From NCBI RefSeq assembly GCF_002367995.1, contig NZ_AP018207.1:2242660-2306659 (forward strand): 64,000 bases of DNA. Direction: 5' to 3'. The translations under genes were made by a program, and so were the position numbers. Positions 8,027 to 64,000 of the stretch are shown in pieces. The notes under the pieces are model-generated. The model did not search any database. It saw nothing but the letters and a program-made list of their open reading frames with translations, and had not been told where the DNA came from. Each line of letters opens with the position of its first letter. The stretch's first letter is position 1. Source of the DNA: Calothrix brevissima NIES-22. Lineage in GTDB: Bacteria; Cyanobacteriota; Cyanobacteriia; Cyanobacteriales; Nostocaceae.

Positions 8027-8270
8027 GACCTTGGTTACGCTCCTACTGAAAATTCAAAACCAAAATTCGCTATAGTCAGCCAGGAATTTTGCTTTTTGAA
8101 TTTTTAAACTCTTTACTAGTATTCTGCCAGACAAATTTTGCGTAGTGTGTAGTCAGTCGAGAGCGTTTTTTTCAGCTTTCTTGACAATCACTACCTTTCA
8201 GCAAAGTTTCTTAATTTGACTACCAGGTATTTGATGATAATTACGGACGGTAGAGAAAGTAGCTGCACCT

Positions 8271-9236
8271 TTAGATCGTAAACTGTTCTGTAATACTGAT
8301 ATCATTCAATGCCACCCTGATGCTAAATGTTTCTCCTGTATCGCCCCGTAGTTGTAATTGAATGTAATTATCGGCACTGCGTGCTTGAGCTGCCAGAAAC
8401 ACAGCACCAGATTCATCTAAAACAGTAAGTTGGACTCCTTCAGGTAAATAAATTTCATTACCTGTAGGGTGTAACTGCAGACGAATGCTAGTTTTTTCCT
8501 CAGAGAGAGGGCTGATTTCCACAATCAACATCAGGGGTTTGTCAGCGACTTGGATACCCAAATCGAGCAGTTTTGCCCTTCTGGTGACTGGTTGTGAATG
8601 GTCAGGTGTTTGCGGCTCAAACACTTCTGCACTGCGAAACGAGAAGGCTAAGGTGGGTGCTTGGGAATTCCATAAGGCCTCCAGACTTTGCCAACCTGAT
8701 TCAAATATACCAGCAAACCACTGACGTAAATTGACTACACTGGCTTCTGCTTGTTTGAGTTGTTCCAGATGCTCGATCAAAGCTTCGGGAGGTTGGAGTT
8801 GGGTTAAAGGTAAGTCTTCCGTAAATACACTAGGCACAAAACCCAATAACTTTGCTTCTCGTAAAGAATCATCAATTTGCACCACTACATAACCGATTCG
8901 TTCTTCCCATGTTTCCGGGGGAACAAAGCATGTATGGGCATGACTTTTTACAGGGCGACATTCCAAACTACCCAAGGATGGTAGAGCTAAATCTGCGACA
9001 TCTGCAAATAAGCGCATGAGAGAATTCCAACTATCACTAGCGGTGAGATTGGTAGGAATATCCATGAATTGCAAATATTCCTGCACCACCAAGATAGCTA
9101 AGGTATTGAGTTTGACTTGGGCTGCTTTTTCTGGAGTTGGTTGTTGGCTGGCAAAGTTTTGGGCTATTCTGCGGGCTGCTTGCGTAATCGGCAAAGGTAC
9201 AGCGAAATTGTCTTGCTGATATATAGCGTGAGTCAT
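8271..9236 (-). CDS. DUF1822 family protein
   Basis: 321-residue soluble protein. It has the DUF1822 layout: the N-terminal segment FAVPLPITQAARRIAQNFA, the early VKLNTLAILVVQEYLQ helix, the middle WEERIGYVVVQIDDSLREA motif and a C-terminal beta-rich half. The family is restricted largely to cyanobacteria and has no known biochemistry. Elsewhere it is genetically tied to CHASE2/CHAT proteins and sometimes to sigma factors; here it immediately precedes the CHAT-CHASE2 gene. I infer a regulatory or adaptor role in that module. No membrane segment or signal peptide is visible. Confidence 0.82.
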   Translation of the reverse strand: MTHAIYQQDNFAVPLPITQAARRIAQNFASQQPTPEKAAQVKLNTLAILVVQEYLQFMDIPTNLTASDSWNSLMRLFADVADLALPSLGSLECRPVKSHAHTCFVPPETWEERIGYVVVQIDDSLREAKLLGFVPSVFTEDLPLTQLQPPEALIEHLEQLKQAEASVVNLRQWFAGIFESGWQSLEALWNSQAPTLAFSFRSAEVFEPQTPDHSQPVTRRAKLLDLGIQVADKPLMLIVEISPLSEEKTSIRLQLHPTGNEIYLPEGVQLTVLDESGAVFLAAQARSADNYIQLQLRGDTGETFSIRVALNDISITEQFTI

Positions 9237-9341
9237 AAATTTAGTTCCCAGTTTTCGATGCTGCCATACACATATCGGCCTGATTTGCGAGATTTATGCC
9301 ATTAATGTTGAATTATTAAATTTTTGTGATCTTTGGGCAGG

Positions 9342-9446
9342 GAAGGGAAGGGGACAAGGGGGACAAGGAGGACAAGGGGGACAAGGGGGACAAGGGGGAC
9401 AAGGAGGACAAGGAGGACAAGGGGGACAAGGGGGACAAGGAGGACA
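9342..9446. repeat. STRR array (GGACAAGGA/G 9-mers)
   Basis: About eleven head-to-tail copies of GGACAAGGA/GGACAAGGG between DUF1822 and the TPR-CHAT gene. The three overlapping reading frames in this stretch encode only Pro-Cys-Pro, Leu-Val-Pro and Ser-Leu-Ser runs and are repeat artefacts. The same 9-mer array occurs inside the coding sequence of the STAND NTPase at 17902-18006. Confidence 0.85.
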
Positions 9447-9532
9447 AATGACCATTGACCATTGACCATTGACCATTGACCATTGACCATTGACAATTGA
9501 CCATTGACAATTGACCATTGACCATTGACCAT
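9447..9532. repeat. Heptamer repeat (TTGACCA)
   Basis: About twelve tandem copies of ATTGACC/ATTGACA directly abut the 9-mer array and end at the stop codon of the TPR-CHAT gene. The same heptamer family recurs at 13850-13885, 24655-24755, 42320-42480, 44155-44215, 45665-45735 and 53550-53650. Confidence 0.85.
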
Positions 9533-12177
9533 CAAAGCCAATTCCCAATCAAAACATAGGCAGACCAAAAACTAGGGGTGTTGTAGTTGGGATGTTGCAG
9601 TAGTTGTAGTTGGGCGTTGCGTAAGGCTTGGGCTTTGGTGACTTTACCTTCTTTGAGTTGTTTGTAGAAAGCACCGACAAAAAAAGCTGTTGATTGATCG
9701 TCAATTTGCCACAAAGATGCTATTGTACTGCGTGCGCCGGCTCTAACTGCGGTACCGGCTAAACCCAAGGCGGCGCGGTTGTCTCCGGCTGCTGTTTGAC
9801 AAGCACTTAATACTAATAGTTCTACGGGTTGGGGTTTGCTTTCATCGCGGTTACGCAGCAAACTATCAAATTGGGTAACGTTAATTGGCCCGTCAGCAGC
9901 CAAGATAAATGTGTCTTCGGCACGGGAACTAAATTGACCGTGGGTCGCTAGATGCACTACGTTGAAGGGAAAGGTATTCACTTCTTTTTCTAGGGCTGGA
10001 CGGGTAAATTGAGCATCAATGATGCTGGTGGTGGTGACTCCAGATTGAGCTATTGACTCAAATTCCGATTTGATGCCTGGAAGACTAGGAAAATAATTGT
10101 ACCCTGGTGGCGGGTCTGTAAGTCCGGCGGTGAGGGCGCGGATTTGCTGTGTTAATAATGGTTTGGGGTCGAGAAGTTGCAAGCCGACGCTGAGAGCGAT
10201 CGCATATTTCTCAATTAAATATTGTTTACCATCATACAGCGATGCCATTGGGATGTTGCGTAAAGCTCCATCTAAGACAAACACTAAGGTGTTTACTTGT
10301 TTGGCTGGTAATTCCGATTCAATGGGTGCAATCAGCCAGTTGTAAACCTGTTGCGATCGCTTTTTCACTGTATTAGTAGCAGCCGGATTAACCAAGCTTC
10401 TCCGCATTTCTGCTATAACTTGGTTGACTTCTGTTTCGCTAATTGCTGTACTGTAATGCTTTAGCGGTGTTTTGGGAATTTTGGCAATTACTTGAATTTG
10501 ATTTTTAAGTATGATGGGATACAAGATAGCTGTATGAGGATTATCTTGGTCTACAATTTTATCTAAAGGTACATTCTGACCGGAAATACAGGCTTCACGA
10601 AAGAAATTATCTAATTCTGCTAACTGTAACGCTTCAATGCGCTGGCGGGCTTTATCTAATGTGGTTTCATCGGGTTCTTTGCTTTGGGATTGCAGTAATA
10701 ACTCTACAGATTCGCGATACACTGGTTCAACGCTGTCACGAAAGTTAAATTGCACGTTCTGATTAACTGTAACCAAATCACGGCGTAGTAGTTGCAGAGT
10801 ATCTACAGCTGCATCATAAGCAGCGATCGCATTTTTAATCTCATTTTTTGCCCAAAGTAATCTCCCTAGTTGCCAATCTACCCGATAAACAATTTCTGGT
10901 GCATTGCTGGTTTGGGCTAAAACTAAGGCTTGTTGCGTCAGCTTGAGTGCTTCTTGAGTTTGTTGCGTCTGCTCGTACAAATTACCTAAACTCAAAACTG
11001 CATAGGCTTCCGTTTGTCCATCGCCTAAACTGCGAGATTGGGCGATCGCTTTAACTAGTAGGGGGGCGATATCTTGATAACTGATACTAGGGTAAGCATC
11101 AGCATTTTTCACTAACTTATTAAGACTTTGCGCCAGATTAATAGTAGCGTAGATACTACCACGACTGTTAGGCAGTTGCGCCAGTCGAGATTGAATACCT
11201 GGTACTAGAGTTGTCGCTGCTGTCAATTCACCATTTTCAATTAACAGACTGAGGTGATTTAGCTGCGCTTGCACTTTAGTTAAGGGAAAAGGGGATATTT
11301 CCACAGCATTTTGATAATTAGCGATCGCCTCTGCTTTGTTTCGCTGCGTCCGGTAGTTATTGCCTAAACTCAAATAACTAGCGCCAATATCTGCACTCGA
11401 TTGCAGATTTTTGGCGATGTTCAGACTTTGCTGTAACAGAGTTTGCGACTTTTCCCCATCACCCATTGCTAACAGAATATCGCCGAGCGATCGCAATTGC
11501 ACTGCTTTCGCGATTGAATCAGGCTGTAATTGTATTTTTTTATCTACTTCTTTCAGTATTTCTGCGGCTCGTCTATACGCCCCTTGACTGCGCCAAGCTT
11601 GTGATTGATTAATTAGAGACTTGACTACACCATTTTGGTTATTTAATTGTGTATAAATTTTTTCCGCTTGTTGCCAAGTAATTAAAGCCGCCTCAGCTTG
11701 TCCTGTGGAAATTTGCCAGCGTCCTTGAATATCCAGCATTTGCGCAAATATTAATGAATTTTGCTTATTTGCAGATTTTTTGAGTAAATTTAAGCTTTGG
11801 CTAATTACTTGCTGCGCCTGCGTCCAATTACCAACTTGCTGATAAGCTAGAGAAAGATTTCCCAAAGTTGCCGCCAGAGCTAAATTATCACCTTGATTTT
11901 GGTAAGCCTTCACCGCTTGCTGTAATACCTCTACCGCCTCAGCAAACCTCCCTGCATCGTAAAGCAATTTACCTTGTTGCAGTAAAGCATCAGGGCTGGC
12001 GACTTGGTTAATAATAGATTGAGAAGAAGAGTTAACTCCCGGAACCGCCGCCATAATAGGAGTATTCAAGCTGCACAGCAACGCCAACAGAAAGTAAAAC
12101 AGCAGACGTAAAACTTGATAATTTTGCCTGTAAAGTTTGCGCAAATTGAGCAGAGAAAATTGAATTACTTTCCTCAT
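9532..12177 (-). CDS. TPR-CHAT caspase-like protein
   Basis: 881-residue protein. An N-terminal hydrophobic segment (VLRLLFYFLLALLCSLNTPIMA, about 22-43) is a signal peptide or anchor. Residues about 60-470 are tetratricopeptide repeats (e.g. LLYDAGRFAEAVEVLQQA, LGNLSLAYQQVGNWTQAQQV). The C-terminal CHAT domain has the catalytic His746 in VVHLATHGQF and Cys793 in VLSACQTAAG. By family knowledge TPR-CHAT proteins resemble separase-like proteases whose TPRs bind partners. It is the most upstream member of the minus-strand CHAT/DUF1822/CHASE2/DUF928 run; a 295-bp repeat-filled gap separates it from DUF1822, so it may have its own transcript end. Confidence 0.85.
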   Translation of the reverse strand: MRKVIQFSLLNLRKLYRQNYQVLRLLFYFLLALLCSLNTPIMAAVPGVNSSSQSIINQVASPDALLQQGKLLYDAGRFAEAVEVLQQAVKAYQNQGDNLALAATLGNLSLAYQQVGNWTQAQQVISQSLNLLKKSANKQNSLIFAQMLDIQGRWQISTGQAEAALITWQQAEKIYTQLNNQNGVVKSLINQSQAWRSQGAYRRAAEILKEVDKKIQLQPDSIAKAVQLRSLGDILLAMGDGEKSQTLLQQSLNIAKNLQSSADIGASYLSLGNNYRTQRNKAEAIANYQNAVEISPFPLTKVQAQLNHLSLLIENGELTAATTLVPGIQSRLAQLPNSRGSIYATINLAQSLNKLVKNADAYPSISYQDIAPLLVKAIAQSRSLGDGQTEAYAVLSLGNLYEQTQQTQEALKLTQQALVLAQTSNAPEIVYRVDWQLGRLLWAKNEIKNAIAAYDAAVDTLQLLRRDLVTVNQNVQFNFRDSVEPVYRESVELLLQSQSKEPDETTLDKARQRIEALQLAELDNFFREACISGQNVPLDKIVDQDNPHTAILYPIILKNQIQVIAKIPKTPLKHYSTAISETEVNQVIAEMRRSLVNPAATNTVKKRSQQVYNWLIAPIESELPAKQVNTLVFVLDGALRNIPMASLYDGKQYLIEKYAIALSVGLQLLDPKPLLTQQIRALTAGLTDPPPGYNYFPSLPGIKSEFESIAQSGVTTTSIIDAQFTRPALEKEVNTFPFNVVHLATHGQFSSRAEDTFILAADGPINVTQFDSLLRNRDESKPQPVELLVLSACQTAAGDNRAALGLAGTAVRAGARSTIASLWQIDDQSTAFFVGAFYKQLKEGKVTKAQALRNAQLQLLQHPNYNTPSFWSAYVLIGNWL

Positions 12178-12271
12178 GGGATAAATGTCAGCCTAGTTCA
12201 GAGAAGTCTGCATTCAAATAGTACCGGAGATTGGGCGCTCTTGTAGAAACGCGATTCATCGCGTCTGTTTT
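12178..12271. other. Intergenic spacer upstream of TPR-CHAT
   Basis: The likely promoter region of the minus-strand TPR-CHAT gene. It includes a short GCGATTCATCGCGTCT repeat at about 12251-12266, a motif also seen at 12475-12498 and 41632-41667. No clear -10/-35 pair can be defended. Confidence 0.3.
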
Positions 12272-12456
12272 GGGAGCATCCCAATTTTGACGCAATACCC
12301 TTCTAGGGTATTGCTATACCAACAAAGCCTGCCTTCTTTTGCTAAAAGTTTGATAGCCTGCGTTCGTCGAAGACGTTCCCGAAGGGTAGGCAGGCTTTGT
12401 ATTTCTAGCCCCACCCTTATAGGGTGAGGGCGTTTTTGCACATTTGGGATGCTCCC
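12272..12456. mobile_element. MITE-like element with cloverleaf folding, copy 1
   Basis: A 185-bp element bounded by perfect inverted ends GGGAGCATCCCAA (12272-12284) and TTGGGATGCTCCC (12444-12456). Inside are three more inverted repeats: GCAATACCC/GGGTATTGC (12292-12314), GCCTGCC/GGCAGGC arms facing each other, and CCACCCT/AGGGTGA near 12412-12427. Folded, it gives a closing stem with three hairpin arms. A second copy in opposite orientation lies at 39032-39192. This copy has about 25 extra bases in the middle arm. A 71-codon frame across it exists only because of the repeat. Confidence 0.8.
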
Positions 12457-12590
12457 TCTGTTTTGAATCATTGCGTCTGTTTTGAATCATCGCGTCTCCT
12501 GTGTAAAAGTAAACTAAAGTCTAAAACAGTTACACAGAAAGCAGTGACATAATATAGTTAACTAACCAATGTCAAGATGTGAGATGGGCG

Positions 12591-13841
12591 ATGAAAGAAC
12601 GACTGCAAATCCACAAAAAAGCTGACTCATCAAACTCTCAGTTAGAGTCTAGTCTATTCCCATCGCCACAATCCCCTGACAAAACTAAACAAAGTTCTCC
12701 CAAACCGCTTACCCAGCTAGAAATTGCTAACCAACAATTTCAACAACATAAAATAGAAGCGACAAAGTTAGCTATTCAAGCCAAGTATGGTAGCTTAACT
12801 CCAGAAGCACAAGAGCGATTGACTGTATTACAAGCCAAGATGGATAGCTTTTGGGAAAATACAGGCGAACAAGGTTATGGTGTTGGGCATAACTTTGATA
12901 ACATAGCCACAAATCGTCCTCAAGATTCAATTATCCAAGCGCAACTGACTATCGGCAAACCTGGAGACAAATACGAACAAGAAGCTGATAATGTGGCTGC
13001 TAAGGTAGTTAATCAAATAAATACAGCGAATGGAGAAAACCAAATATTACCAGCCAAAGAAGAAGGACAAGCTACTGCTGAAGCCGCAGGAGGAGAAACT
13101 TCTGTCTCTCCCCAAAAACAAAGATTTCTCCAAGATTATTTAGTAGCTAAAGAACTCGTACATGGTATAGATGAAACCTTACCCACAGATAAAATTTTAG
13201 AAGGGCTATTTAACAACTTTAAAAATATCGGCTTTAAATACACAATGGTGAGTAAAAGCGCAGAAAAGTTGTTAACAGGAACCAGAGAAGGTGATTGTCA
13301 AACTTTAGCTGAAGCGTTTAAACGAGTAGCAGAAGGGTATTTTGGGATTCCTAATATCAATATTGAAAAAATTCCCAAACCCTTTTTAAGTGAAGCAGGA
13401 AAAACGCCTTATAGAGGCAGAGAACCGAATTGTGATGATGGTAAACGTTGGTTCTTTCAAAATCATTATTGGGTAACATGGAATAATAAAGTATATGATG
13501 TTTTATTCCTCAGTCATAAGAAAGTAGAAACAGATTTAGCCAGACAAACAGATCCACTAAAATCAATGTTAATGCCAGAGGAAGAATACTTTGAAACCGA
13601 GAAAGGCAAAGTAGTATATCCATATAAAAATCAATACTCTACCGCAGAACTCAGCATGTTTGAAAAGCTGAAAAACTTTATCAAAAATATGGGTAGATGG
13701 TTAGCTAACGATATGGATAATATTACCGCTAAAATTCACGGTTTATTAATTAGAAAAGCTGGTGCTAGCGAATTTGATGCATTGATGCAAGAATTACAAA
13801 ATAATCAAATTAATCAAGCTGCTTCTAGAGATGGGGAATAG
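12591..13841 (+). CDS. eCIS-core-like (DUF4157-type) protein with Cys-protease-like domain
   Basis: Protein of 416 residues (ATG 12591; a GTG at 12579 would add four). Residue numbers here count from the GTG. A polar N-terminus is followed by AQLTIGKPGDKYEQEADNVA (121-140), the signature seen at the start of eCIS core/DUF4157 domains, which tag proteins linked to extracellular contractile injection systems. The usual HExxH that follows is absent. The next domain has GDCQTLAEAF (Cys240), FQNHYW (His296) and KVYDVLF (Asp307), an order and spacing like transglutaminase/papain-fold peptidases. I infer a cargo or effector. No injection genes lie in the window, and the catalytic assignment is untested. 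Confidence 0.6.
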   Translation: MKERLQIHKKADSSNSQLESSLFPSPQSPDKTKQSSPKPLTQLEIANQQFQQHKIEATKLAIQAKYGSLTPEAQERLTVLQAKMDSFWENTGEQGYGVGHNFDNIATNRPQDSIIQAQLTIGKPGDKYEQEADNVAAKVVNQINTANGENQILPAKEEGQATAEAAGGETSVSPQKQRFLQDYLVAKELVHGIDETLPTDKILEGLFNNFKNIGFKYTMVSKSAEKLLTGTREGDCQTLAEAFKRVAEGYFGIPNINIEKIPKPFLSEAGKTPYRGREPNCDDGKRWFFQNHYWVTWNNKVYDVLFLSHKKVETDLARQTDPLKSMLMPEEEYFETEKGKVVYPYKNQYSTAELSMFEKLKNFIKNMGRWLANDMDNITAKIHGLLIRKAGASEFDALMQELQNNQINQAASRDGE

Positions 13842-55990: not shown

Positions 55991-56142
55991 ATTGTCAGCA
56001 AATTAAAGTTTATCTCCTATGCCCACAGTGCGATCGCACTGTGGGCAAAATTATCTCGATCAATTTCAGCACATAATACTTACAGCGATTACGGGAATAC
56101 TGAAATAAAGACGAATCGCCAGATTTGGCTAATTTGCATTTT

Positions 56143-58806
56143 ATGAATTCGCCCTTTATTCTCACTATTGCTGGAATAGTTACTACTGTACATCTGGTAT
56201 TGACTCAACCTTGTTACCCTCAAGCGATCGCCCCAGATGGTAGTCTGAATACAAATGTTACTTCTACTGATGGGTTAAATTTTTCCATTACAGGTGGTAA
56301 TCAAGCTGGCGGTAATCTTTTTCATAGCTTTAGCGAATTCTCTGTACCTAATGGTGGTTCTGCTAATTTTAATCATGCTGCCTTCATTCAAAATATTATC
56401 AGTCGCGTGACTGGGATAATGCCTTCTCATATCAATGGCATAATCCATACTCAGGGAAATGCTAATTTATTCTTAATTAATCCTAATGGCATTATTTTTG
56501 GTGCTAATGCCCAATTAGATATTGGCGGCTCATTTTTAGCAACTACTGCTAAAAGTTTACAGTTTGCCGATGGCAAAGAATTTACTACAAATATAGATAA
56601 AAATCCTCCTTTATTAAGTATCAATGTTCCTATCGGATTACAATTTTCTAGTAATTCAAAACCTATCCAAGTACAAGCAGCTAATCTGAAAGTTCCCATC
56701 AATCAAACTCTTGCACTGATTGGTGGCGAAATTAATATTAATAGCAGTCAATTAACTGCCGATAGCGGTCATATTGAACTCGGTGGAATAGCCGATGCAG
56801 CTACGATTGGATTTTCATTAAACGCGAATCGGTCACAATTCAATTTTCCAGACAATATTACCAGAGCTAATATATCAATCACAGATAATTCTTTAGTCAC
56901 AACCAGTGGTGATGGTGGAGGTAGTATTCAAATAACAGGAAAACAGTTGTTCATTGAGAATTCTTGGGTAAAAGCGGATACATTAAGTGATATTTCTGGT
57001 GCAAATTTAAAATTAAATGCTTCAGATTCAATCATAGTCTCAAGCAACAGAACAACCGGACTGTTTACAGATGGATTATTTGCCACAACTAGTGGTAGTG
57101 GTGATAGCTTAGGCATCACAATCAATACTAACAATCTTCAGGTTCAAGGTGAAGCTCGTATCTCTACAGCAACGTTAGAAAACTCTTCCGGTAAAGGAGG
57201 TAATTTAACCATTAATGCTAAAGCAGCAGTTGAATTAATTGGTACTGATTCTGATAAGTTTGATTTATTTACTGGGTTATTAGCAGATACTTCTGGTACT
57301 GGTAGCGGGGGAAATTTAACAGTAAATACCGGGCGATTATTCGTGCATCACGGAGCGCAAATATCTGCTGCAACTATAGGAGATGCCACAGGTGGAAACT
57401 TGACGATTAATGCTGCTAATAGTGTGGAATTAATCGGAGTCACAGATTCTGATTCTTTCAGTAGTGGCTTGTTTACAGCAGTTCAAGAAGGTAAGGGACA
57501 AGGTGGTGATTTAATAGTTAACACTAAGAAGTTAATTATTCATGATGGGGCACAAATTTTTGCAGGTACTACAGCAGCAGGAAATAGTGGAAATATTATC
57601 ATTAATGCTAGAGACTCTGTCAACGTTAGCGGAGTATCCCTAATTCAGAAAATTCCTGGTGGTGTTTTCAGTGGTAGCAATCCCAATACTACTGGCAATG
57701 CCGGGAATATAATCATTAATACGCACCAATTAATAGTAGAAAATGGAGGTAATATTGCTGTTGAAACCCTTGGTTCTGGTAAGGGAGGAGTCGTAAAAAT
57801 TAATGCCACTGATTCTATTAAATTGCTAGGGCAAGGCCCTCTCAGAACAGATCCGTTAGACGAAAGCAAATTAATCCCAACATTTAGTAGCTTATCTGCT
57901 AGTGTTTTAGATATTGAAAATAATAATCCTGCTGGTAACTTAGAAATTTCCACAGGTAAATTATTAGTCCAAGGTGGTGGTAGGTTAAGCGTGGATAATG
58001 AAGGTAAGGGTAAGGGGGGAAATATTAATATTCAAGCTGACTCTATAGAACTAGATAATAGAGGTAATCTACAACAAGATTCTGGAGGAATTCAAGCTAC
58101 AACTAAATCGGGTGAGGGAGGTAATATTGTCTTACATCTTCAAGATATTTTATTAATGCGAAACGGTAGCAAAATTACTACTGATTCTACAGGTGGTAAT
58201 GGTAATGGTGGAGATATTAATATTACTTCTGGGTTGTTAGTTGCTGCTGATAATAGCGATATTACAGCTAATGCAATTGCTGGTAGAGGTGGGAATGTGC
58301 AAATTACAACGCAAGGAATATTTGGGATTGAATTTCGTCCCGAACTCACGGCTAACAGCGAGATTACAGCTAGTTCTCAGTTTGGTTTAAGTGGAACTGT
58401 AGAAATTACAACTTTAGCTGTAGATCCTACCAAAGGAATTGCTGTTTTACCAACGCAGCCAAATGATGCTTCAACATTAATTACTCAAAGTTGTGGACAA
58501 AATAATCCCGCAACATCCAGCAGTTTAACTGTGATTGGACGAGGTGGTTTACCACAAAATCCTGAGGTGGCTTTGAGTGGCGATTTCACTTTGCAAGATA
58601 TCCAAACAGTCCCCATTTATAGCAGTAGCGATCGCACTAAAGGAGTTACTGCTTTTGCCAGTCTACCACTACCTCACTCTGATGAACTTGTCGAAGCTCA
58701 AGGACTGATAATAACGCCCCAAGGAGATGTGGTTTTAACTGCACAGGTACTAGTAAATACCCCTCATAATTCTGGATTACCCTCAACTACTTGTAATTCA
58801 AATTAG
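56143..58806 (+). CDS. Two-partner-secretion exoprotein (filamentous haemagglutinin N-terminal domain)
   Basis: 887-residue secreted beta-helix protein. A signal peptide (SPFILTIAGIVTTVHLVL, cleavage near CYPQA) precedes the TPS domain: SFSEFSVPNGGSANFNH, ISRVTGIMPSHINGIIHTQG and ANLFLINPNGIIFGANAQLD. The middle is Gly/Asn-rich repeated beta-strands (GKGGNLTINA...). The C-terminal GRGGLPQNPEVALSGDFTLQ block is conserved in cyanobacterial members. ATG 56143 is preferred to the TTG at 56125. No TpsB (outer-membrane transporter) gene is in the window, so it must use one from elsewhere. Role in adhesion is family inference. Confidence 0.85.
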   Translation: MNSPFILTIAGIVTTVHLVLTQPCYPQAIAPDGSLNTNVTSTDGLNFSITGGNQAGGNLFHSFSEFSVPNGGSANFNHAAFIQNIISRVTGIMPSHINGIIHTQGNANLFLINPNGIIFGANAQLDIGGSFLATTAKSLQFADGKEFTTNIDKNPPLLSINVPIGLQFSSNSKPIQVQAANLKVPINQTLALIGGEININSSQLTADSGHIELGGIADAATIGFSLNANRSQFNFPDNITRANISITDNSLVTTSGDGGGSIQITGKQLFIENSWVKADTLSDISGANLKLNASDSIIVSSNRTTGLFTDGLFATTSGSGDSLGITINTNNLQVQGEARISTATLENSSGKGGNLTINAKAAVELIGTDSDKFDLFTGLLADTSGTGSGGNLTVNTGRLFVHHGAQISAATIGDATGGNLTINAANSVELIGVTDSDSFSSGLFTAVQEGKGQGGDLIVNTKKLIIHDGAQIFAGTTAAGNSGNIIINARDSVNVSGVSLIQKIPGGVFSGSNPNTTGNAGNIIINTHQLIVENGGNIAVETLGSGKGGVVKINATDSIKLLGQGPLRTDPLDESKLIPTFSSLSASVLDIENNNPAGNLEISTGKLLVQGGGRLSVDNEGKGKGGNINIQADSIELDNRGNLQQDSGGIQATTKSGEGGNIVLHLQDILLMRNGSKITTDSTGGNGNGGDINITSGLLVAADNSDITANAIAGRGGNVQITTQGIFGIEFRPELTANSEITASSQFGLSGTVEITTLAVDPTKGIAVLPTQPNDASTLITQSCGQNNPATSSSLTVIGRGGLPQNPEVALSGDFTLQDIQTVPIYSSSDRTKGVTAFASLPLPHSDELVEAQGLIITPQGDVVLTAQVLVNTPHNSGLPSTTCNSN

Positions 58807-59512: not shown

Positions 59513-60079
59513 ATGCTAAGTAACTCCCATAACTTAACTAGTACAGAAAGTTTGATTGCAGATCTCAACGATGAAGAATTAGCCGCTTGTGTCGGTGGCT
59601 GTGATATTGCAGTTACTTTTGGGAAAAAGGCGTTGCTAACAGTTCCACTAGTTGAATCAAAATTATTAGGCTATACGAGTGTCAATGCAGGCGTGAAAAT
59701 TATCGATCAAGCTCTAGATCTAGGAGTCACTTACGATCCTAATGGCTCAAAGCGCTTCTTGAGCGATCGCAATGTCAAAGAAGCAGTCGCTGAGATTGAT
59801 GTTCACGATATCCTCAAGGGAATTGTGGATTTACCCATTACCACTTGGAAATATAAAAACCAAGATGAAACAATTCGTCATATAGGCCCGATGGCGCAAG
59901 ACTTTGCAGCAACGTTTAACTGCGGTGAAAGCGATCGCTTTATCAATGCTGTAGATGCTAATGGTGTGGCTTTAGCCGCAATTCAAGCACTGTACCAACT
60001 GATGCAGCAAAAAGATTCCCAAATCAGAGAACTGCAAATACAGTTACTGCAACTACAGCAACAGATAACTGATAAATAA
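59513..60079 (+). CDS. RiPP-like precursor: double-Gly leader plus peptidase S74 domain (1)
   Basis: 188 residues in three parts. Leader (1-29): TESLIADLNDEELAACVGG, an acidic leader ending in a Gly-Gly processing site, like Nif11/NHLP-type leaders. Middle (30-83): starts with Cys30 (GGCDIAVTFGKK) and is variable. C-terminal domain (about 76-165): the S74 (chaperone of endosialidase) fold, with DPNGSKRFLSDRNVKEAVAE (Ser84, Asp85, Lys89), TWKYKNQDETIRHIGPMAQD and GVALAAIQALYQL, then a Gln-rich coiled coil. In phage tail spikes this domain trimerises and cuts itself off at the Ser. The next gene is a relative and a YcaO enzyme follows. Confidence 0.75.
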   Translation: MLSNSHNLTSTESLIADLNDEELAACVGGCDIAVTFGKKALLTVPLVESKLLGYTSVNAGVKIIDQALDLGVTYDPNGSKRFLSDRNVKEAVAEIDVHDILKGIVDLPITTWKYKNQDETIRHIGPMAQDFAATFNCGESDRFINAVDANGVALAAIQALYQLMQQKDSQIRELQIQLLQLQQQITDK

Positions 60080-60193
60080 GGGAACTCCAAAAAATAAATT
60101 ATTTCGTTTAAGTCGTTGACTGTTGACAGTTAACAGTTAACAGTCAACAATCAACAATCATTAGGGAATATTTTTTTACGTGGAAATCTCTAA
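60080..60193. mobile_element. Short MITE with GGGAACTCC ends containing heptamers
   Basis: GGGAACTCCAAAAAATAAAT at the left (from 60080) and TTTTTTTACGTGGAAATCTC at the right (to about 60193) are imperfect inverted repeats matching the family at 51737. Inside is a run of GACTGTTGACAGTTAACAGT heptamers (60117-60165) that is itself partly palindromic (GTTAAC). It lies between the two precursor genes. Confidence 0.6.
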
Positions 60194-60268
60194 GCTCGAT
60201 TTATCGCAAAATATCAGTAATTAGCCAATATTGCCCATATCTAATTTCAGACGCTCATCAGGAAAATT

Positions 60269-60799
60269 ATGTACAATAATGACCAAAACCCGTTACCAAC
60301 AGCCAGCTTAATTGAAGAATTAACGGATGATGAATTAGCAAATTACATGGGCGGTACTGGCTATATTAATCCAGCACGACAAGAAATTCCTGGAAATAGC
60401 GGAACATTAAATGCACCAGGGTTACAAAATAACGCCAATTTTTATCTAGATCCCAATGGCTCAAAACGCTTTATCAGCGATCGCCATGTCAAAGAAGTTG
60501 TAGCTGAGGTGGATGTTCAGGCTATTCTTTTGGGAATTGCCAATTTACCCATAACTTCTTGGAAGTATAAAAACCAGGATGAAACAATTCGTCATATAGG
60601 CCCGATGGCGCAAGACTTTGCGGCAATTTTTAACTGTGGTGAAAGCGATCGCTTTATTAATACTGTAGATGCTAATGGTGTGGCTTTAGCCGCAATTCAA
60701 GCACTTTACCAAAAATTGCAAGCTCAAGATTTAGAAATAAATAGCCTAAGTCAGCAAATTAGCGAAATAAAACAGCATCTATTAATCAAGTCCCAATAA
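60269..60799 (+). CDS. RiPP-like precursor: double-Gly leader plus peptidase S74 domain (2)
   Basis: 176 residues, same build as the gene 189 bp upstream. Leader TASLIEELTDDELANYMGG puts the Gly-Gly at 28-29, exactly as in the first. The middle (30-69) is different: TGYINPARQEIPGNSGTLNA, with no Cys but Thr, Ser and Asn. The S74 part has SKRFISDRHVKEVVAE (Ser70, Asp71, Lys75) and IRHIGPMAQDFAA, nearly identical to the sister. A coiled-coil end (INSLSQQISEIKQHLL) follows. Conserved leader and tail around a divergent middle is the pattern expected of a paralogous precursor pair. It lies 53 bp before the YcaO gene. Confidence 0.75.
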   Translation: MYNNDQNPLPTASLIEELTDDELANYMGGTGYINPARQEIPGNSGTLNAPGLQNNANFYLDPNGSKRFISDRHVKEVVAEVDVQAILLGIANLPITSWKYKNQDETIRHIGPMAQDFAAIFNCGESDRFINTVDANGVALAAIQALYQKLQAQDLEINSLSQQISEIKQHLLIKSQ

Positions 60800-60852
60800 A
60801 TTCTTGTTTTCGTAAAAAACCTTTACTGTGTTTATATTGCACAGCAAAAATT

Positions 60853-63078
60853 ATGCTCATCCAGCCGAAGTTTTACGAGCATTTTCATGTTGAATTATCT
60901 CCTCCTAAAACTGTATTTTTATTAAGTGAAAAAGGTCATTTTGTCTTGAATGGGCGTTTATATTACCTTTTAGCACCCCTACTTAATGGACTTTACACAG
61001 TAGAGGAAATCATTCAACAATTGCAAGGACAAGCTAAGGCTGATGAAATTCTTTATGGTTTAGAACAATTGCATCGTAAAGGTTATATTACCAACGCAGA
61101 TAACATCTCGCATCAGGAATCTGCTTTTTGGGGACTGCTAAATCAAGATGGTAACTCGGTTACCCAAGCGCAAAAAGCAGCTAAAGTTAGCATTACCACC
61201 TTTGGTAGCGTCAAATCACAGCCATTAACTGCAATTTTAGAATCTCTGAATATTTCTGTGGCGGATTCTGGTAAATTTGCTGTGGTGCTTACAGATGACT
61301 ATCTTCAACCAGGATTAGCAAAATTTAACCACGAAGCTTTACAACAGCAGCTTCCTTGGTTATTAGTCAAACCTGTAGGCAGTGTAATTTGGATTGGCCC
61401 TATTTTTCGTCCTGGCGTGACAGGTTGCTGGGAATGTCTCGCACAGCGTTTGAGAATGAATCGTGAGGTTGAATCTTTTTTACAAGAACAAAAGCAAACC
61501 CTCAACCCGGTTTTGATTTCTCGTGCGGCGTTACCTTCAACTGTAGATACTGCGCTGAATTTAGCAGCTACAGAAATTGCTAAATGGTTAAGTAATCCCG
61601 AACAGCATACCCTAGAAGGGACATTATTAACTTTTGATTTAATTAATCTCAACATCCAACGCCATACTTTAGTTCGTCGTCCCCAATGCGATTGTTGCGG
61701 CGAAATAGCCTATCAGCAACCAGAACCTCAACCATTGGTATTAACTAGCCAACCCAAGCAATTAAGCGATGATGGTGGGTATCGCAGTTGTTTACCAGAA
61801 CAAGCTTGGCAAAATTACGAACATCATATTAGCCCAGTAACTGGCGTAATTAAAAGTATCTTTCAACCTTTCCAGAACAACGAGCTGATTCACGCCTATG
61901 TTGTTGAGCATAGTTTACCGTACAAAGGCAGAAGATTAGAGGATTTACGCCAAAAAAGCTTTGGTAAAGGGAAAACAGCCGCTCAAGCGAAGATGAGCGC
62001 CTTAGGCGAAGCAATTGAGCGCTATTGCGGAGCTTTTACAGGAGAAGAACCAAGGGTGAAAGCTGCTTATGCTAATTTGCAAGAATTGGCGATTCATCCT
62101 GATAAGTTTATGCACTATAGCGCTAATCAATACCGCGATCGCCAAATTTGGAATCAGCAACACCATGTTATTCAATGGATACCCGATCCTTTTGATGAAA
62201 GTCAAGAAATTGAATGGTCGCCTTTTTGGTCGCTAAATCAGCAACAATTTAAATATCTACCAACAGCCTATTGTTATTATGGTTATCCTCTCCCGGAAAA
62301 CCACAACTTTTGTTTTGCAGATACTAATGGTACAGCTGCGGGAAGTTGTAAAGAAGAGGCTATTCTTCAGGGCTTTATGGAGTTAGTTGAGCGGGATGCA
62401 GTAGCAATTTGGTGGTATAATCGACTCGCTAAACCTGGGGTAAATTTTCATAGTTTTGACGAGCCGTATCTAAATAAATTACATACATACTATAAATTTA
62501 TCGGTCGTGATTTCTGGGTATTAGACTTAACTACTGATTTAAATATTCCCACCTTCGCCGCAATTTCTCGCCGCTACAATCAACAGCCGGAAGATATTTT
62601 ATTTGGCTTTGGTACTCACTTTGATGCCAAAATTGCTCTGTTACGTGCTGTCACAGAAATGAATCAAATGGTATTTCTCTCTAGTAATGGAAATCCTCAA
62701 TCTTCTGCCAAATTTAGCCGTCAAGATATGCAGCATTGGTGTACAACTGCTACATTAGAAAATCAACCTTATTTATCACCGGATATTAATGCCATCCCCA
62801 AAGTTTACACAGATTATGCTCTCTACCAAAGTAATGATTTGCAACAAGATGTAATTAATTGTGTAAATTTAGCTGCAACAAAAGAGCTAGAAATATTGGT
62901 TCTAGAGCAAACACGCCCAGATATTGCTATACCTGTTGTGAAAGTTGTGGTTCCCGGTTTGCGTCACTTTTGGGCACAGTTTGCACCAGGACGATTATAT
63001 GAAGTTCCCGTAAACATGGGATGGTTAAAAGCAGAACTTCCAGAAACTCAGCTTAATCCAATTCCTATGTTTTTGTAA
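60853..63078 (+). CDS. Fused TOMM cyclodehydratase (E1-like partner plus YcaO)
   Basis: 741-residue enzyme expected to bind a peptide leader and make azoline or related backbone changes using ATP. Residues about 1-300 are the E1/ThiF-like leader-binding part (start VELSPPKTVFLLSEKGHFVL, zinc Cys in GCWECLAQ 192-195 and CDCC 279-282). Residues about 310-741 are YcaO: SALGEAIERYCGAF (383-396), MELVERDAVAIWW and ETQLNPIPMFL, the Pro-rich C-terminal end needed for activity in this family. This C-D fusion is as in PatD/TruD-type enzymes. It follows two leader-bearing genes on the same strand, so it is the likely modifying enzyme. No protease or transporter gene is seen next to it. Confidence 0.85.
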   Translation: MLIQPKFYEHFHVELSPPKTVFLLSEKGHFVLNGRLYYLLAPLLNGLYTVEEIIQQLQGQAKADEILYGLEQLHRKGYITNADNISHQESAFWGLLNQDGNSVTQAQKAAKVSITTFGSVKSQPLTAILESLNISVADSGKFAVVLTDDYLQPGLAKFNHEALQQQLPWLLVKPVGSVIWIGPIFRPGVTGCWECLAQRLRMNREVESFLQEQKQTLNPVLISRAALPSTVDTALNLAATEIAKWLSNPEQHTLEGTLLTFDLINLNIQRHTLVRRPQCDCCGEIAYQQPEPQPLVLTSQPKQLSDDGGYRSCLPEQAWQNYEHHISPVTGVIKSIFQPFQNNELIHAYVVEHSLPYKGRRLEDLRQKSFGKGKTAAQAKMSALGEAIERYCGAFTGEEPRVKAAYANLQELAIHPDKFMHYSANQYRDRQIWNQQHHVIQWIPDPFDESQEIEWSPFWSLNQQQFKYLPTAYCYYGYPLPENHNFCFADTNGTAAGSCKEEAILQGFMELVERDAVAIWWYNRLAKPGVNFHSFDEPYLNKLHTYYKFIGRDFWVLDLTTDLNIPTFAAISRRYNQQPEDILFGFGTHFDAKIALLRAVTEMNQMVFLSSNGNPQSSAKFSRQDMQHWCTTATLENQPYLSPDINAIPKVYTDYALYQSNDLQQDVINCVNLAATKELEILVLEQTRPDIAIPVVKVVVPGLRHFWAQFAPGRLYEVPVNMGWLKAELPETQLNPIPMFL

Positions 63079-63174: not shown

Positions 63175-64000
63175 ATGAAGTTTAAGATAGCTAGCGATCG
63201 AGCTGGTATTTTTACATCTCAAAGACAACCATTTATCGGCAACAGTTATCAAGAAAATTTTGTGAATATTTTTGATGCTTATCCCGATTTAATTTTGTTA
63301 ACAACCTTGGGTAAGGGTTATTGCGTAGAAGTAAATCAAACTTTTTTAAATGTCACCGGCTACAGCCGGGAAAATGTCATAGGTACGCCCATTACAGTTT
63401 TGGATATGGGATTAACAGTTGACAGTTATACGCAAATCAAAAAAAAGTCCCAGACACAGGATTTTATCCAAAATTTAGAAATTGAATTTTGTTTAAAGTC
63501 TGGGGAAAAACGCATCGGTTTACTATCTGTTAAGCGCTTAGAATGGTTCGGTAAAACTTATTTACTGAATGTGATTCGTGATATTACAGAGCGGAAACAA
63601 ATAGAAGATGATTTACGCCGAATTGCCATGCACGATCCCTTGACAGGGTTACCCAATCGGGCTTACTTTATGCAGCAATTAGATTATGTTATTGAATCTC
63701 TGCAATATCATCCTGATTCTTGTTCTTATATTCTCTTTTTAGATTTGGATGCATTTAAAGCAATTAATGACAATTTTGGTCATGCTATGGGAGATAAATT
63801 ATTAATTGAAATTAGTCAGAGGCTCAGAGCTATACTCAGATGGGGAGATTTTATTGCCCGTCTTGGTGGTGATGAATTTGTGATTCTGCTGGAGGATGTG
63901 CAAAATTTTCGTTATGCTACGCGCATTGCTAATCAAGTAATTACTGCTCTCAAAAAACCAATGTTATTGAATGGGAAGAAAATTTCTTGTTCGGTGAGTA
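63175..64000 (+). CDS. PAS-GGDEF diguanylate cyclase (cut by window end)
   Basis: Starts ATGAAGTTTAAGATAG at 63175 and stays open to the edge. The first half is a PAS domain (IFDAYPDLILLTTLGKGYCV, NVTGYSRENVIGTPI) with a PAC end NVIRDITERKQIEDDL. Then MHDPLTGLPNRAYF opens a GGDEF domain: FLDLDAFKAINDNFGHAMGD, and RLGGDEF with an RxxD (RWGD) inhibitory site five residues before it. It should make cyclic-di-GMP and be feedback inhibited. An EAL domain could follow beyond the window. The -10-like TATAAT at about 63153 is upstream. Confidence 0.88.
   Translation, partial: MKFKIASDRAGIFTSQRQPFIGNSYQENFVNIFDAYPDLILLTTLGKGYCVEVNQTFLNVTGYSRENVIGTPITVLDMGLTVDSYTQIKKKSQTQDFIQNLEIEFCLKSGEKRIGLLSVKRLEWFGKTYLLNVIRDITERKQIEDDLRRIAMHDPLTGLPNRAYFMQQLDYVIESLQYHPDSCSYILFLDLDAFKAINDNFGHAMGDKLLIEISQRLRAILRWGDFIARLGGDEFVILLEDVQNFRYATRIANQVITALKKPMLLNGKKISCSVS

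What the first reader, a model, noticed from the sequence alone, without database searches (positions are those of the whole stretch)
59513..63078. RiPP-like locus with self-cleaving S74 chaperone precursors and a YcaO enzyme
Seen: two adjacent genes share a 29-residue leader ending in Gly-Gly at the same position, a divergent 40-54 residue middle, and a near-identical peptidase S74 domain with Ser-Asp-x3-Lys and a coiled-coil end. 53 bp later comes a 741-residue fused E1-like/YcaO cyclodehydratase. Known: S74 domains trimerise phage tail proteins and cut themselves off at the Ser; YcaO fusions modify leader-bearing peptides. Inference: the middle segment is released by two cuts, one at Gly-Gly and one by S74 self-cleavage, perhaps after YcaO modification and trimer assembly. 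I know of no described system of this type.
Basis: partly seen in the sequence, partly recalled or inferred. Interest (0 to 1): 0.92.

Follow-up and report, generated by a model that had tools for sequence, protein, structure and literature searches.

The report
Peptide precursors with self-cleaving chaperone tails
A cyanobacterial gene cluster encodes two precursor proteins that look like peptide natural-product precursors with a phage-type, self-cleaving trimerising domain as a removable tail, next to an enzyme related to those that build ring-containing peptides; this arrangement appears undescribed.

Summary
Two adjacent genes (59513-60079, 60269-60799) encode a leader ending in Gly-Gly at residues 28-29, a 54- or 40-residue middle, and a peptidase S74 domain with Ser-Asp-x3-Lys. 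A 741-residue enzyme follows 53 bp later: a full-length relative of the cyanobactin cyclodehydratases LynD, TruD and MusD.

The arrangement is conserved. In 10 of 10 genomes where I found leader-S74 proteins, this YcaO lies beside them. All 19 such proteins keep the Ser and Lys. Two related genomes have S74-less precursors in the same place. These four and five unlinked ones stop 4-9 residues after a conserved DPNGSxR motif; the predicted S74 cut lies 2 residues after it (5 in one protein). The leaders carry a cyanobactin-like recognition element. C39 peptidase-transporters lie at 4 of 12 loci.

Best reading: a RiPP-type precursor with a self-removing, trimerising C-terminal follower. Self-cleavage, Gly-Gly cleavage and heterocyclisation are inferred, not shown. 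A ring at residue +1 would block the Gly-Gly cut. A biofilm or adhesive role is a serious rival. S74 on lasso-like precursors, and apparently split S74 systems in actinobacteria, suggest a wider phenomenon.

The parts
59513..60079 (+). S74a precursor gene, 188 aa
   Evidence: ORF; Pfam Peptidase_S74 8.9e-11; S74a-type gene in 9 of 9 loci of the main group
59513..59599 (+). leader of S74a, ends Gly28-Gly29; contains LIADLNDEEL
   Evidence: Leu at -12 and -7 and both Gly invariant in 14 of 14 aligned proteins
59600..59761 (+). middle (candidate core) of S74a, 54 aa, starts with Cys30, ends DPNGSKRFL
59762..60076 (+). S74 domain and coiled coil of S74a; Ser84, Asp85, Lys89; predicted self-cut just before Ser84
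   Evidence: mechanism from passages of PMC3742443 and PMC10769870
60269..60799 (+). S74b precursor gene, 176 aa
   Evidence: ORF; Pfam Peptidase_S74 2.2e-10
60269..60355 (+). leader of S74b, ends Gly28-Gly29; contains LIEELTDDEL
60356..60475 (+). middle (candidate core) of S74b, 40 aa, starts with Thr30, ends DPNGSKRFI
60476..60796 (+). S74 domain and coiled coil of S74b; Ser70, Asp71, Lys75; predicted self-cut just before Ser70
60853..63078 (+). cyanobactin-type cyclodehydratase, 741 aa: winged-helix (RRE-like) part (60877-61092), E1-like leader-binding part (61354-61851), YcaO domain (61963-62964)
   Evidence: Pfam and NCBIfam; full-length homology to MusD 7u58, LynD 4v1t, TruD 4bs9; that the winged helix acts as an RRE is recalled
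56125..58806 (+). TPS (filamentous-haemagglutinin-type secreted) protein, 893 aa; conserved neighbour, link to the system uncertain
   Evidence: Pfam TPS 6.7e-63; next to the locus in 12 of 12 loci compared (9 main-group loci, L139, L178, and divergent in L138)
63175..64000 (+). PAS-GGDEF diguanylate cyclase gene (313 aa, continues past the window); conserved neighbour in the main group only
   Evidence: orthologue L005:13652-14590 has PAS and GGDEF; present in 9 of 9 main-group loci, no hit in the stretches L138, L139, L178

Best explanation
The locus makes ribosomal peptides by a cyanobactin-like route with a new precursor layout. (1) The enzyme's N-terminal winged-helix and E1-like parts bind the leader element L-[IL]-x-[ED]-L-[STNH]-[DE]-x-x-L (inferred from homology). 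(2) Its YcaO domain cyclodehydrates Cys, Thr or Ser in the middle segment; the candidates present in every precursor are residue +1 after Gly-Gly (Cys or Thr) and the Ser of [DN]PxGS (inferred). (3) The C-terminal S74 domains trimerise, possibly mixing a and b, and cut themselves off just before Ser84/Ser70, leaving a middle that ends ...PNGSxR[FY]x (inferred from conserved catalytic residues and from S74-less relatives that end near there). (4) A C39 peptidase-transporter removes the leader after Gly-Gly and exports the 40-54-residue product (inferred from transporter genes at some relatives). The S74 domain is thus a self-removing follower that can be dispensed with, since two related genomes have the same kind of precursors without it.
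For: YcaO beside leader-S74 genes in 10 of 10 genomes. Full-length LynD/TruD/MusD homology, including the regions around the nucleotide-binding motifs and the Cys pairs of the E1-like part (that these are catalytic or zinc sites is recalled). Leader element like the LAELSEEAL of PatE, a chain in LynD entries 4v1t and 4v1u, and like the LAELSEEVL of a cyanobactin-like precursor in this same genome. My regular expression for that element hits 30 of 11,667 distinct small ORFs in 181 sequences, all 30 being these precursors (27) or cyanobactin-like precursors (3); I wrote it with both in view and it misses one precursor, L139:9301-9579. Ser and Lys of S74 kept in 19 of 19 (18 counted, the 19th, L006a). 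S74-less precursors in G107 and G1172 beside a 70-71% identical YcaO, and five unlinked ones, all nine ending 4-9 residues after DPNGSxR (eight counted as 4-8; L139:9301-9579 has 9 by inspection). Distance from [DN]PxGSxR to the S74 Ser is 2 residues in 18 of 19 and 5 in G378 (L006a). C39-transporter in the G378 and G107 loci and at L006, L007. Gene conversion between a and b concentrated in S74: dS 0.25-0.99 there in 7 of 7 genomes, against above 1 or saturated in 7 of 7 cores, 5 of 7 leaders and 4 of 7 tails.
Against: No product, cleavage or modification is shown. A ring formed from residue +1 would use the carbonyl of Gly29 and mask the C39 site, so if both that cut and a +1 ring are claimed one must give way. 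The middles are conserved, not hypervariable as in cyanobactins, and are poor in Cys/Ser/Thr in the b form. No dehydrogenase, PatA or PatG seen at the locus (by eye). In this genome and in 6 other main-group loci no C39-transporter was found in the stretch examined; this genome has nine C39 domains elsewhere. The residue at -4 is Cys or Tyr in 14 of 14, not the usual hydrophobic one. The nearest NCBIfam hit of S74b and two short precursors is a lantibiotic (plantaricin C) model below its cut-off. S74 can be absent (G107, G1172), so it is not needed for whatever the middle does there. The dS contrast has exceptions: leader dS is 0.75 in L009 and 0.44 in L010, and tail dS is 0.5-0.8 in L008-L010; dN equals or exceeds dS in a few low-divergence segments.
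Confidence: 0.52

Rival explanations
1. The S74 proteins are secreted adhesive or biofilm-matrix proteins. Gly-Gly leaders serve export by a C39-transporter, S74 trimerises short fibres and then leaves, and the YcaO adds a structural modification. The neighbouring TPS adhesin and diguanylate cyclase belong to the same surface programme.
For: TPS gene adjacent in 12 of 12 loci and PAS-GGDEF in 9 of 9 main-group loci. Conserved rather than hypervariable middles. Double-Gly proteins EbfG1-4 of Synechococcus elongatus take part in biofilm formation and their efficient secretion needs a C39 protein (passages of PMC4997328). S74 proteins of Bdellovibrio are trimeric adhesive fibres (passages of PMC10769870).
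Against: Middles of 40-54 residues are short for a fibre; residues 1-80 of the model have low confidence, so no fibre fold is predicted either way. A dedicated cyanobactin-type cyclodehydratase is not expected for a plain fibre. S74-less relatives keep the YcaO.
Confidence: 0.27
2. The YcaO really serves the short, unlinked precursors or others, and the S74 proteins merely borrow the leader, for example as carriers or decoys that hold the enzyme or co-transport it.
For: Five of 8 genus members carry an unlinked short precursor with the same kind of leader. G107 and G1172 have only short ones at the locus.
Against: This genome and two other genus members (G392, G393) gave no short precursor in the same search, yet keep YcaO and both S74 genes. 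The middles of S74 genes are under constraint.
Confidence: 0.1
3. S74 here is only an oligomerising tag that no longer cuts; the product is the whole middle-S74 protein after Gly-Gly cleavage.
For: Trimer formation alone could matter. No cleavage was tested.
Against: Ser, Asp and Lys kept in 19 of 19. S74-less relatives have no such tag.
Confidence: 0.09

Closest known systems
Cyanobactin pathways (LynD/TruD/PatD-type cyclodehydratase with PatE-type precursors)
   Same: Enzyme homologous over its full length; leader element alike
   Different: No PatA/PatG proteases seen, no flanking RSII/RSIII cassettes that I recognise, Gly-Gly leader end, conserved 40-54-residue middle, S74 domain behind it
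NHLP/Nif11 and other double-glycine bacteriocin clusters of cyanobacteria (Haft 2010, seen only as a reference in PMC4603692; Wang 2011, PMC3140520, passages)
   Same: Gly-Gly leader; C39-transporter and HlyD in the G107 and G378 loci
   Different: No hit to a Nif11 or NHLP precursor model (NCBIfam); S74 not seen in the passages shown
S74/ICA proteins: phage endosialidases, T5 L-shaped fibre, MYRF, Bdellovibrio MAT fibres
   Same: S74 fold and Ser-Asp-x3-Lys
   Different: Small precursor with a RiPP-like leader instead of a fibre or transcription factor; beside a cyclodehydratase
RiPPs with follower peptides (bottromycin, AIP)
   Same: C-terminal part removed from the core
   Different: Bottromycin's follower is removed by a separate amidohydrolase (passage of PMC10885120); here the follower would remove itself and is a folded trimerising domain

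Membership tests
Peptidase S74 / intramolecular chaperone auto-processing domain | profile match above the curated cut-off | tested here: met
   42.4 and 41.1 bits against 22
Peptidase S74 / intramolecular chaperone auto-processing domain | Ser-Asp-x3-Lys catalytic motif | tested here: met
   19 of 19 leader-S74 proteins
Peptidase S74 / intramolecular chaperone auto-processing domain | fold and C-terminal coiled coil | tested here: met
   best PDB match 7dc3, E 9.7e-4, probability 1.00, TM 0.41/0.51; helix 146-187; monomer model only
Peptidase S74 / intramolecular chaperone auto-processing domain | self-cleavage and trimer | not testable with these tools
   needs expression
TOMM / azol(in)e-forming RiPP | leader-binding E1-like part plus YcaO cyclodehydratase next to precursor | tested here: met
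TOMM / azol(in)e-forming RiPP | heterocyclised Cys/Ser/Thr in the product | not testable with these tools
   needs mass spectrometry
Cyanobactin | cyclodehydratase of LynD type | tested here: met
   8.4e-217 to LynD
Cyanobactin | PatA/PatG subtilisin-like proteases at the locus | tested here: not met
   none recognised by eye in the ORF lists of the window end, L005-L010, L138, L139, L178; not every ORF was searched against profiles. Therefore not filed as a cyanobactin
Double-glycine C39-processed precursor | Gly-Gly with hydrophobic residues at -4, -7, -12 | tested here: inconclusive
   Leu at -7 and -12 invariant in 14 of 14; -4 is Cys or Tyr in 14 of 14
Double-glycine C39-processed precursor | cognate C39 transporter at the locus | tested here: inconclusive
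   at L006, L007 and L138 among the 10 leader-S74 loci (3 of 10), and at short-type L139 but not seen in L178; this genome has nine C39 domains elsewhere
Nif11 / NHLP precursor | Nif11-like or nitrile-hydratase-like leader | tested here: not met
   no NCBIfam hit to such a model at E up to 1 for S74a, S74b and up to 0.1 for three short precursors and the G378 protein

The most novel reading that the evidence does not exclude
The S74 self-cutting module is a portable, self-excising C-terminal follower for small ribosomal peptides, used in several unrelated pathways: on cyclodehydratase substrates in cyanobacteria, on lasso-type precursors in an acidimicrobial genome (two precursors, each with a candidate 16-17-residue core with Asp at position 8 directly before the S74 Ser), and as a split two-gene system in actinobacteria, where tiny peptides carry Ser-Asp-x3-Lys, sometimes as tandem units, and a second gene supplies the rest of the fold.
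Probability: 0.33. Interest if true: 0.92.

Novelty: new variant of a known kind. Interest (0 to 1): 0.78.

Why it matters
If right, it shows a way to finish a ribosomal peptide without a separate protease at its C-terminus: a trimerising domain acts as a folding or assembly sensor and then removes itself, leaving a defined C-terminus. It would link phage-fibre assembly chemistry to natural-product maturation, raise the possibility of trimeric or mixed a/b peptide products, and provide a follower that could be put to use. It also makes a testable prediction for a set of small S74 proteins that tend to be annotated only as tail fiber domain-containing proteins (as most of the plasmid hits are).

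Tried and rejected
A phage or prophage origin of the locus: no phage genes recognised by eye in the ORF list around it; PHROG hits concern the S74 part only, and a scan of viral contigs with the alignment gave no confirmed relative of 105 pattern matches. The idea that the leaders are Nif11 or NHLP leaders: no profile hit. The idea that the extra 400-550 bp before YcaO in L008-L010 hides a third full precursor: only a leader-like scrap next to the YcaO start. A decayed S74 behind all short genes: only behind the second short gene of G107 is there a trace (the profile match runs through two stops about 20 positions into the S74 part; the local score was reached by 1 of 500 shuffles). Behind its first short gene 42 of 500 shuffles reached the score, behind the two of G1172 75 and 255 of 500, behind three of the five unlinked ones 121-131 of 200 (the other two were not tested). 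The alignment printed lay in another part of the domain than the one I saw by eye, so loss of S74 in G107 and G1172 rests mostly on the YcaO tree, in which G378 (with S74) branches outside both groups; two gains are not excluded. A clean gene-conversion tree: the S74 tree separates a from b in 8% of bootstrap trees, the leader-core tree in 100%; both have many weakly supported forks. Residue-level comparison with the PDB by sequence profile was weak (7dc3 at E 0.61, behind three unrelated chains) and was followed by fold comparison. Further searches for lasso-S74 genes: 2 of 296 and 4 of 298 genomes matched, but only the starting genome over the leader part. A search of plasmids found 15 records with S74 parts, none covering 80% of S74a.

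Limits: at most the 8 best first-look candidates per genome were scored, and at most two, so those tallies are lower bounds. The 24 actinobacterial loci were picked by eye from the 70; L063, L038 and others were not in that set.
Full report
WHAT IS THERE. The window is from a large genome (G000, 9.26 Mb) of cyanobacterial kinship. The closest named match to S74a is in Tolypothrix sp. FACHB-123, 88% identical. Both small proteins have a leader ending in Gly28-Gly29, a middle of 54 or 40 residues, and an S74 domain beginning at Ser84 or Ser70. The AlphaFold model made with 44 sequences is poor for residues 1-80 but confident for the S74 part, and its four best distinct structures are S74/ICA domains (7dc3, 3gud, 3gw6, 4uw8). 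Only 7dc3 has a strong E-value (9.7e-4); the others are 0.3 or worse.

THE ENZYME. The 741-residue protein is not a generic YcaO: it aligns over its whole length with the cyanobactin cyclodehydratases MusD, LynD and TruD. The stretches KSFGKGKT...LGEAIERY and NGTAAG...EEAILQGFMELVERDAVAIWWYN correspond closely to LynD; that these form the ATP site is recalled. The same genome has a separate cyanobactin-like cluster with its own LynD-type enzyme, 50-51% identical to this one.

CONSERVATION. Leader-S74 genes were found in 10 genomes: this one, L005, the seven other genus members (G388-G394; 8 of 8), and the more distant G378. L006-L010 appear to be five of those genus members, by equal contig lengths; the other two are L147 and L148. 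In 10 of 10 the YcaO is adjacent. In nine the order TPS, S74a, S74b, YcaO, PAS-GGDEF is the same; G378 has a single S74 gene, then YcaO, a CHASE2-cyclase, HlyD and a C39-transporter in one direction, with the TPS gene divergent. In a sample of 388 genomes of the class, 8 matched the profile: 2 with leader plus S74 (G000, G378), 1 with short precursors (G107), and 5 with matches to the S74 part only. In a sample of 388 of the order, 9 matched: 4 with leader plus S74, 2 short, 3 S74 part only. The YcaO itself is commoner: 38 of 388 at E<=1e-20. Four of its nearer relatives outside the group (G088, G304, G116, G161) have no S74 gene that I see beside them; each has a small ORF that looks Nif11-like to me (recalled, not searched against profiles). 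So the enzyme family has other partners, but every leader-S74 protein found has this one.

S74-LESS COUSINS. In G107 and G1172 the same TPS-precursor-precursor-YcaO order holds, but both precursors are short (85-98 aa). The second short precursor of each is the S74a counterpart (GGC[DN]IQITT... to ...YDPNGSIRYQS or YDPNGSARYES) and stops a few residues past the place where S74 would begin. G107 also has HlyD and a C39-transporter after the YcaO; none was seen in the stretch fetched for G1172. Five genus members have an additional short precursor with no YcaO in the stretch fetched, near ribosomal-protein genes in the three whose neighbours I listed (by eye). These five are under constraint (dN 0.03-0.08, dS 0.17-0.43). 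All 28 precursors (19 with S74, 9 short) have Cys or Thr right after Gly-Gly (with S74: 14 Cys, 5 Thr; short: 9 Cys) and a [DN]PxGSxR motif (one search counted 18 and 8, and L006a and L139:9301-9579 were added by inspection). In 18 of 19 the S74 Ser lies two residues after that motif, five in G378. The short forms stop 4-9 residues after it. The place where nature stops the short forms is therefore close to where S74 would cut the long ones. This is the best evidence that the middle, not the whole protein, is the common product; it is indirect.

LEADERS. The leaders carry L-[IL]-x-[ED]-L-[STNH]-[DE]-x-x-L (one short precursor has Ile at the end). Cyanobactin leaders carry LAELSEE[AV]L, including PatE in the LynD structures and precursors in this genome and in L126. 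A pattern covering both hits 30 of 11,667 distinct small ORFs, all precursors. The pattern was written after seeing them, so this shows specificity, not prediction. The same stretch also fits a double-Gly leader (Leu at -7 and -12), except at -4.

MOSAIC EVOLUTION. Within each of the 7 genomes tested, the a and b copies have dS 0.25-0.99 in the two S74 segments, while the core is above 1 or saturated in 7 of 7, the leader in 5 of 7 and the tail in 4 of 7. In this genome the second S74 segment of a and b (dS 0.25) is closer than either is to its orthologue in L005 (0.96 and 0.59). The S74 domains are thus kept alike, plausibly by gene conversion. That would suit mixed trimers but needs no function.

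MECHANISM. S74 domains trimerise and then cut before the Ser; Ser and Lys form the dyad (MYRF passages, PMC3742443; Bdellovibrio Bd3182, cut at S782 and blocked in S782A, passages of PMC10769870). The cyclodehydratase acts while the leader is attached (PMC4663559 passage), so modification should precede Gly-Gly cleavage. The order relative to S74 cutting is open. Two residue positions can be cyclised in every precursor; in four b cores (L008, L009, L010, L148) they are the only ones. If residue +1 is cyclised, Gly29-Cys30 is no longer an ordinary peptide bond, so C39 should not cut there. I therefore favour the Ser of DPNGS, or Cys30 with cleavage elsewhere, and would not assert both.

BEYOND THE LOCUS. 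Among the relatives, L064 (acidimicrobial MAG) has two S74 proteins in a cluster with an asparagine-synthase/lasso-cyclase-like gene, a transglutaminase-core (B2-like) gene, a nucleotidyltransferase and a gene with only weak HprK-like similarity. Both have a lasso-like ...EPP[SA]LVWLG...T-x, then 16-17 residues with Asp at position 8, then the S74 Ser; that this is lasso-like is recalled. For the first of the two I did not settle the start codon. It is one genome. In 24 actinobacterial loci, picked by eye because the S74 gene seems to lack the Ser-Asp-x3-Lys segment, 23 have that motif in a reading frame within 930 bp upstream, against 0 of 24 downstream and 4 of 386 other windows. Of the 22 loci printed, 19 show it at the end of a 32-53-residue, often Gly-rich hydrophobic ORF; for L039 and L066 the script took another motif (one search shows the Gly-rich one) and in L069 the start is unsettled. 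L065 has three and L063 eight such units in tandem, each near a gene resembling daptide-type HExxH proteases (far below the curated cut-off). These are leads, not tests.

LITERATURE. I found no paper joining S74 with RiPPs, YcaO or lasso peptides in the held library. Searches returned none; one search returned one, seen as a listing only, which looked unrelated; two searches returned 63 and 757 papers of which 15 each were listed, and none of those listed held both an S74 term and YcaO; one search returned two on followers and autoproteolysis. A 2023 review of RiPP proteases has no occurrence of S74 or chaperone (PMC10885120, passages and term counts); Cox 2015 has no occurrence of S74, chaperone or endosialidase (PMC4603692); in Wang 2011 chaperone, YcaO and hemagglutin gave none, and S74 itself was not searched (PMC3140520). 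Papers outside this library were not seen.

VERDICT. Observation confirmed. The pairing of a leader-bearing, S74-tailed precursor with a cyanobactin-type cyclodehydratase is conserved and, as far as searched, undescribed. Chemistry, cleavage and biological role are inference.

Noticed in passing
L064:9791-10763 and neighbours 7305-12957: Two S74 proteins with lasso-like leaders and candidate 16-17-residue cores in a lasso-type gene cluster of an acidimicrobial MAG; no other genome of the class and order samples (296 and 298 searched) matched over the leader part.
   Followed up: partly
24 actinobacterial loci among L036-L069 (for example L036:9664-10261, L043:9672-10264): Apparently split S74: a tiny, mostly Gly-rich hydrophobic ORF carries Ser-Asp-x3-Lys and the next gene the rest of the domain; motif upstream in 23 of 24 loci against 0 of 24 downstream controls.
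   Followed up: partly
L063:1-900 and L065:9538-9747: Small ORFs with tandem units ending in Ser-Asp-x3-Lys (eight and three units), near an S74 remainder gene and a daptide-HExxH-like protease gene.
   Followed up: partly
L140 (G000:C1:8405000-8424999): The same genome has a cyanobactin-like cluster with LAELSEE leaders, a second LynD-type enzyme and, by eye, subtilisin-like genes.
   Followed up: no
window 56125-58806: The TPS secreted-protein gene stays next to the precursor genes in 12 of 12 loci compared; why is unknown.
   Followed up: partly
L008, L009, L010 just before the YcaO start: A leader-like scrap overlaps or abuts the YcaO start, perhaps a relic of a third precursor.
   Followed up: no
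L006:4386-4523 and L007:503-634: HlyD fragments beside the C39-transporter, suggesting decay of the export genes at some loci.
   Followed up: no
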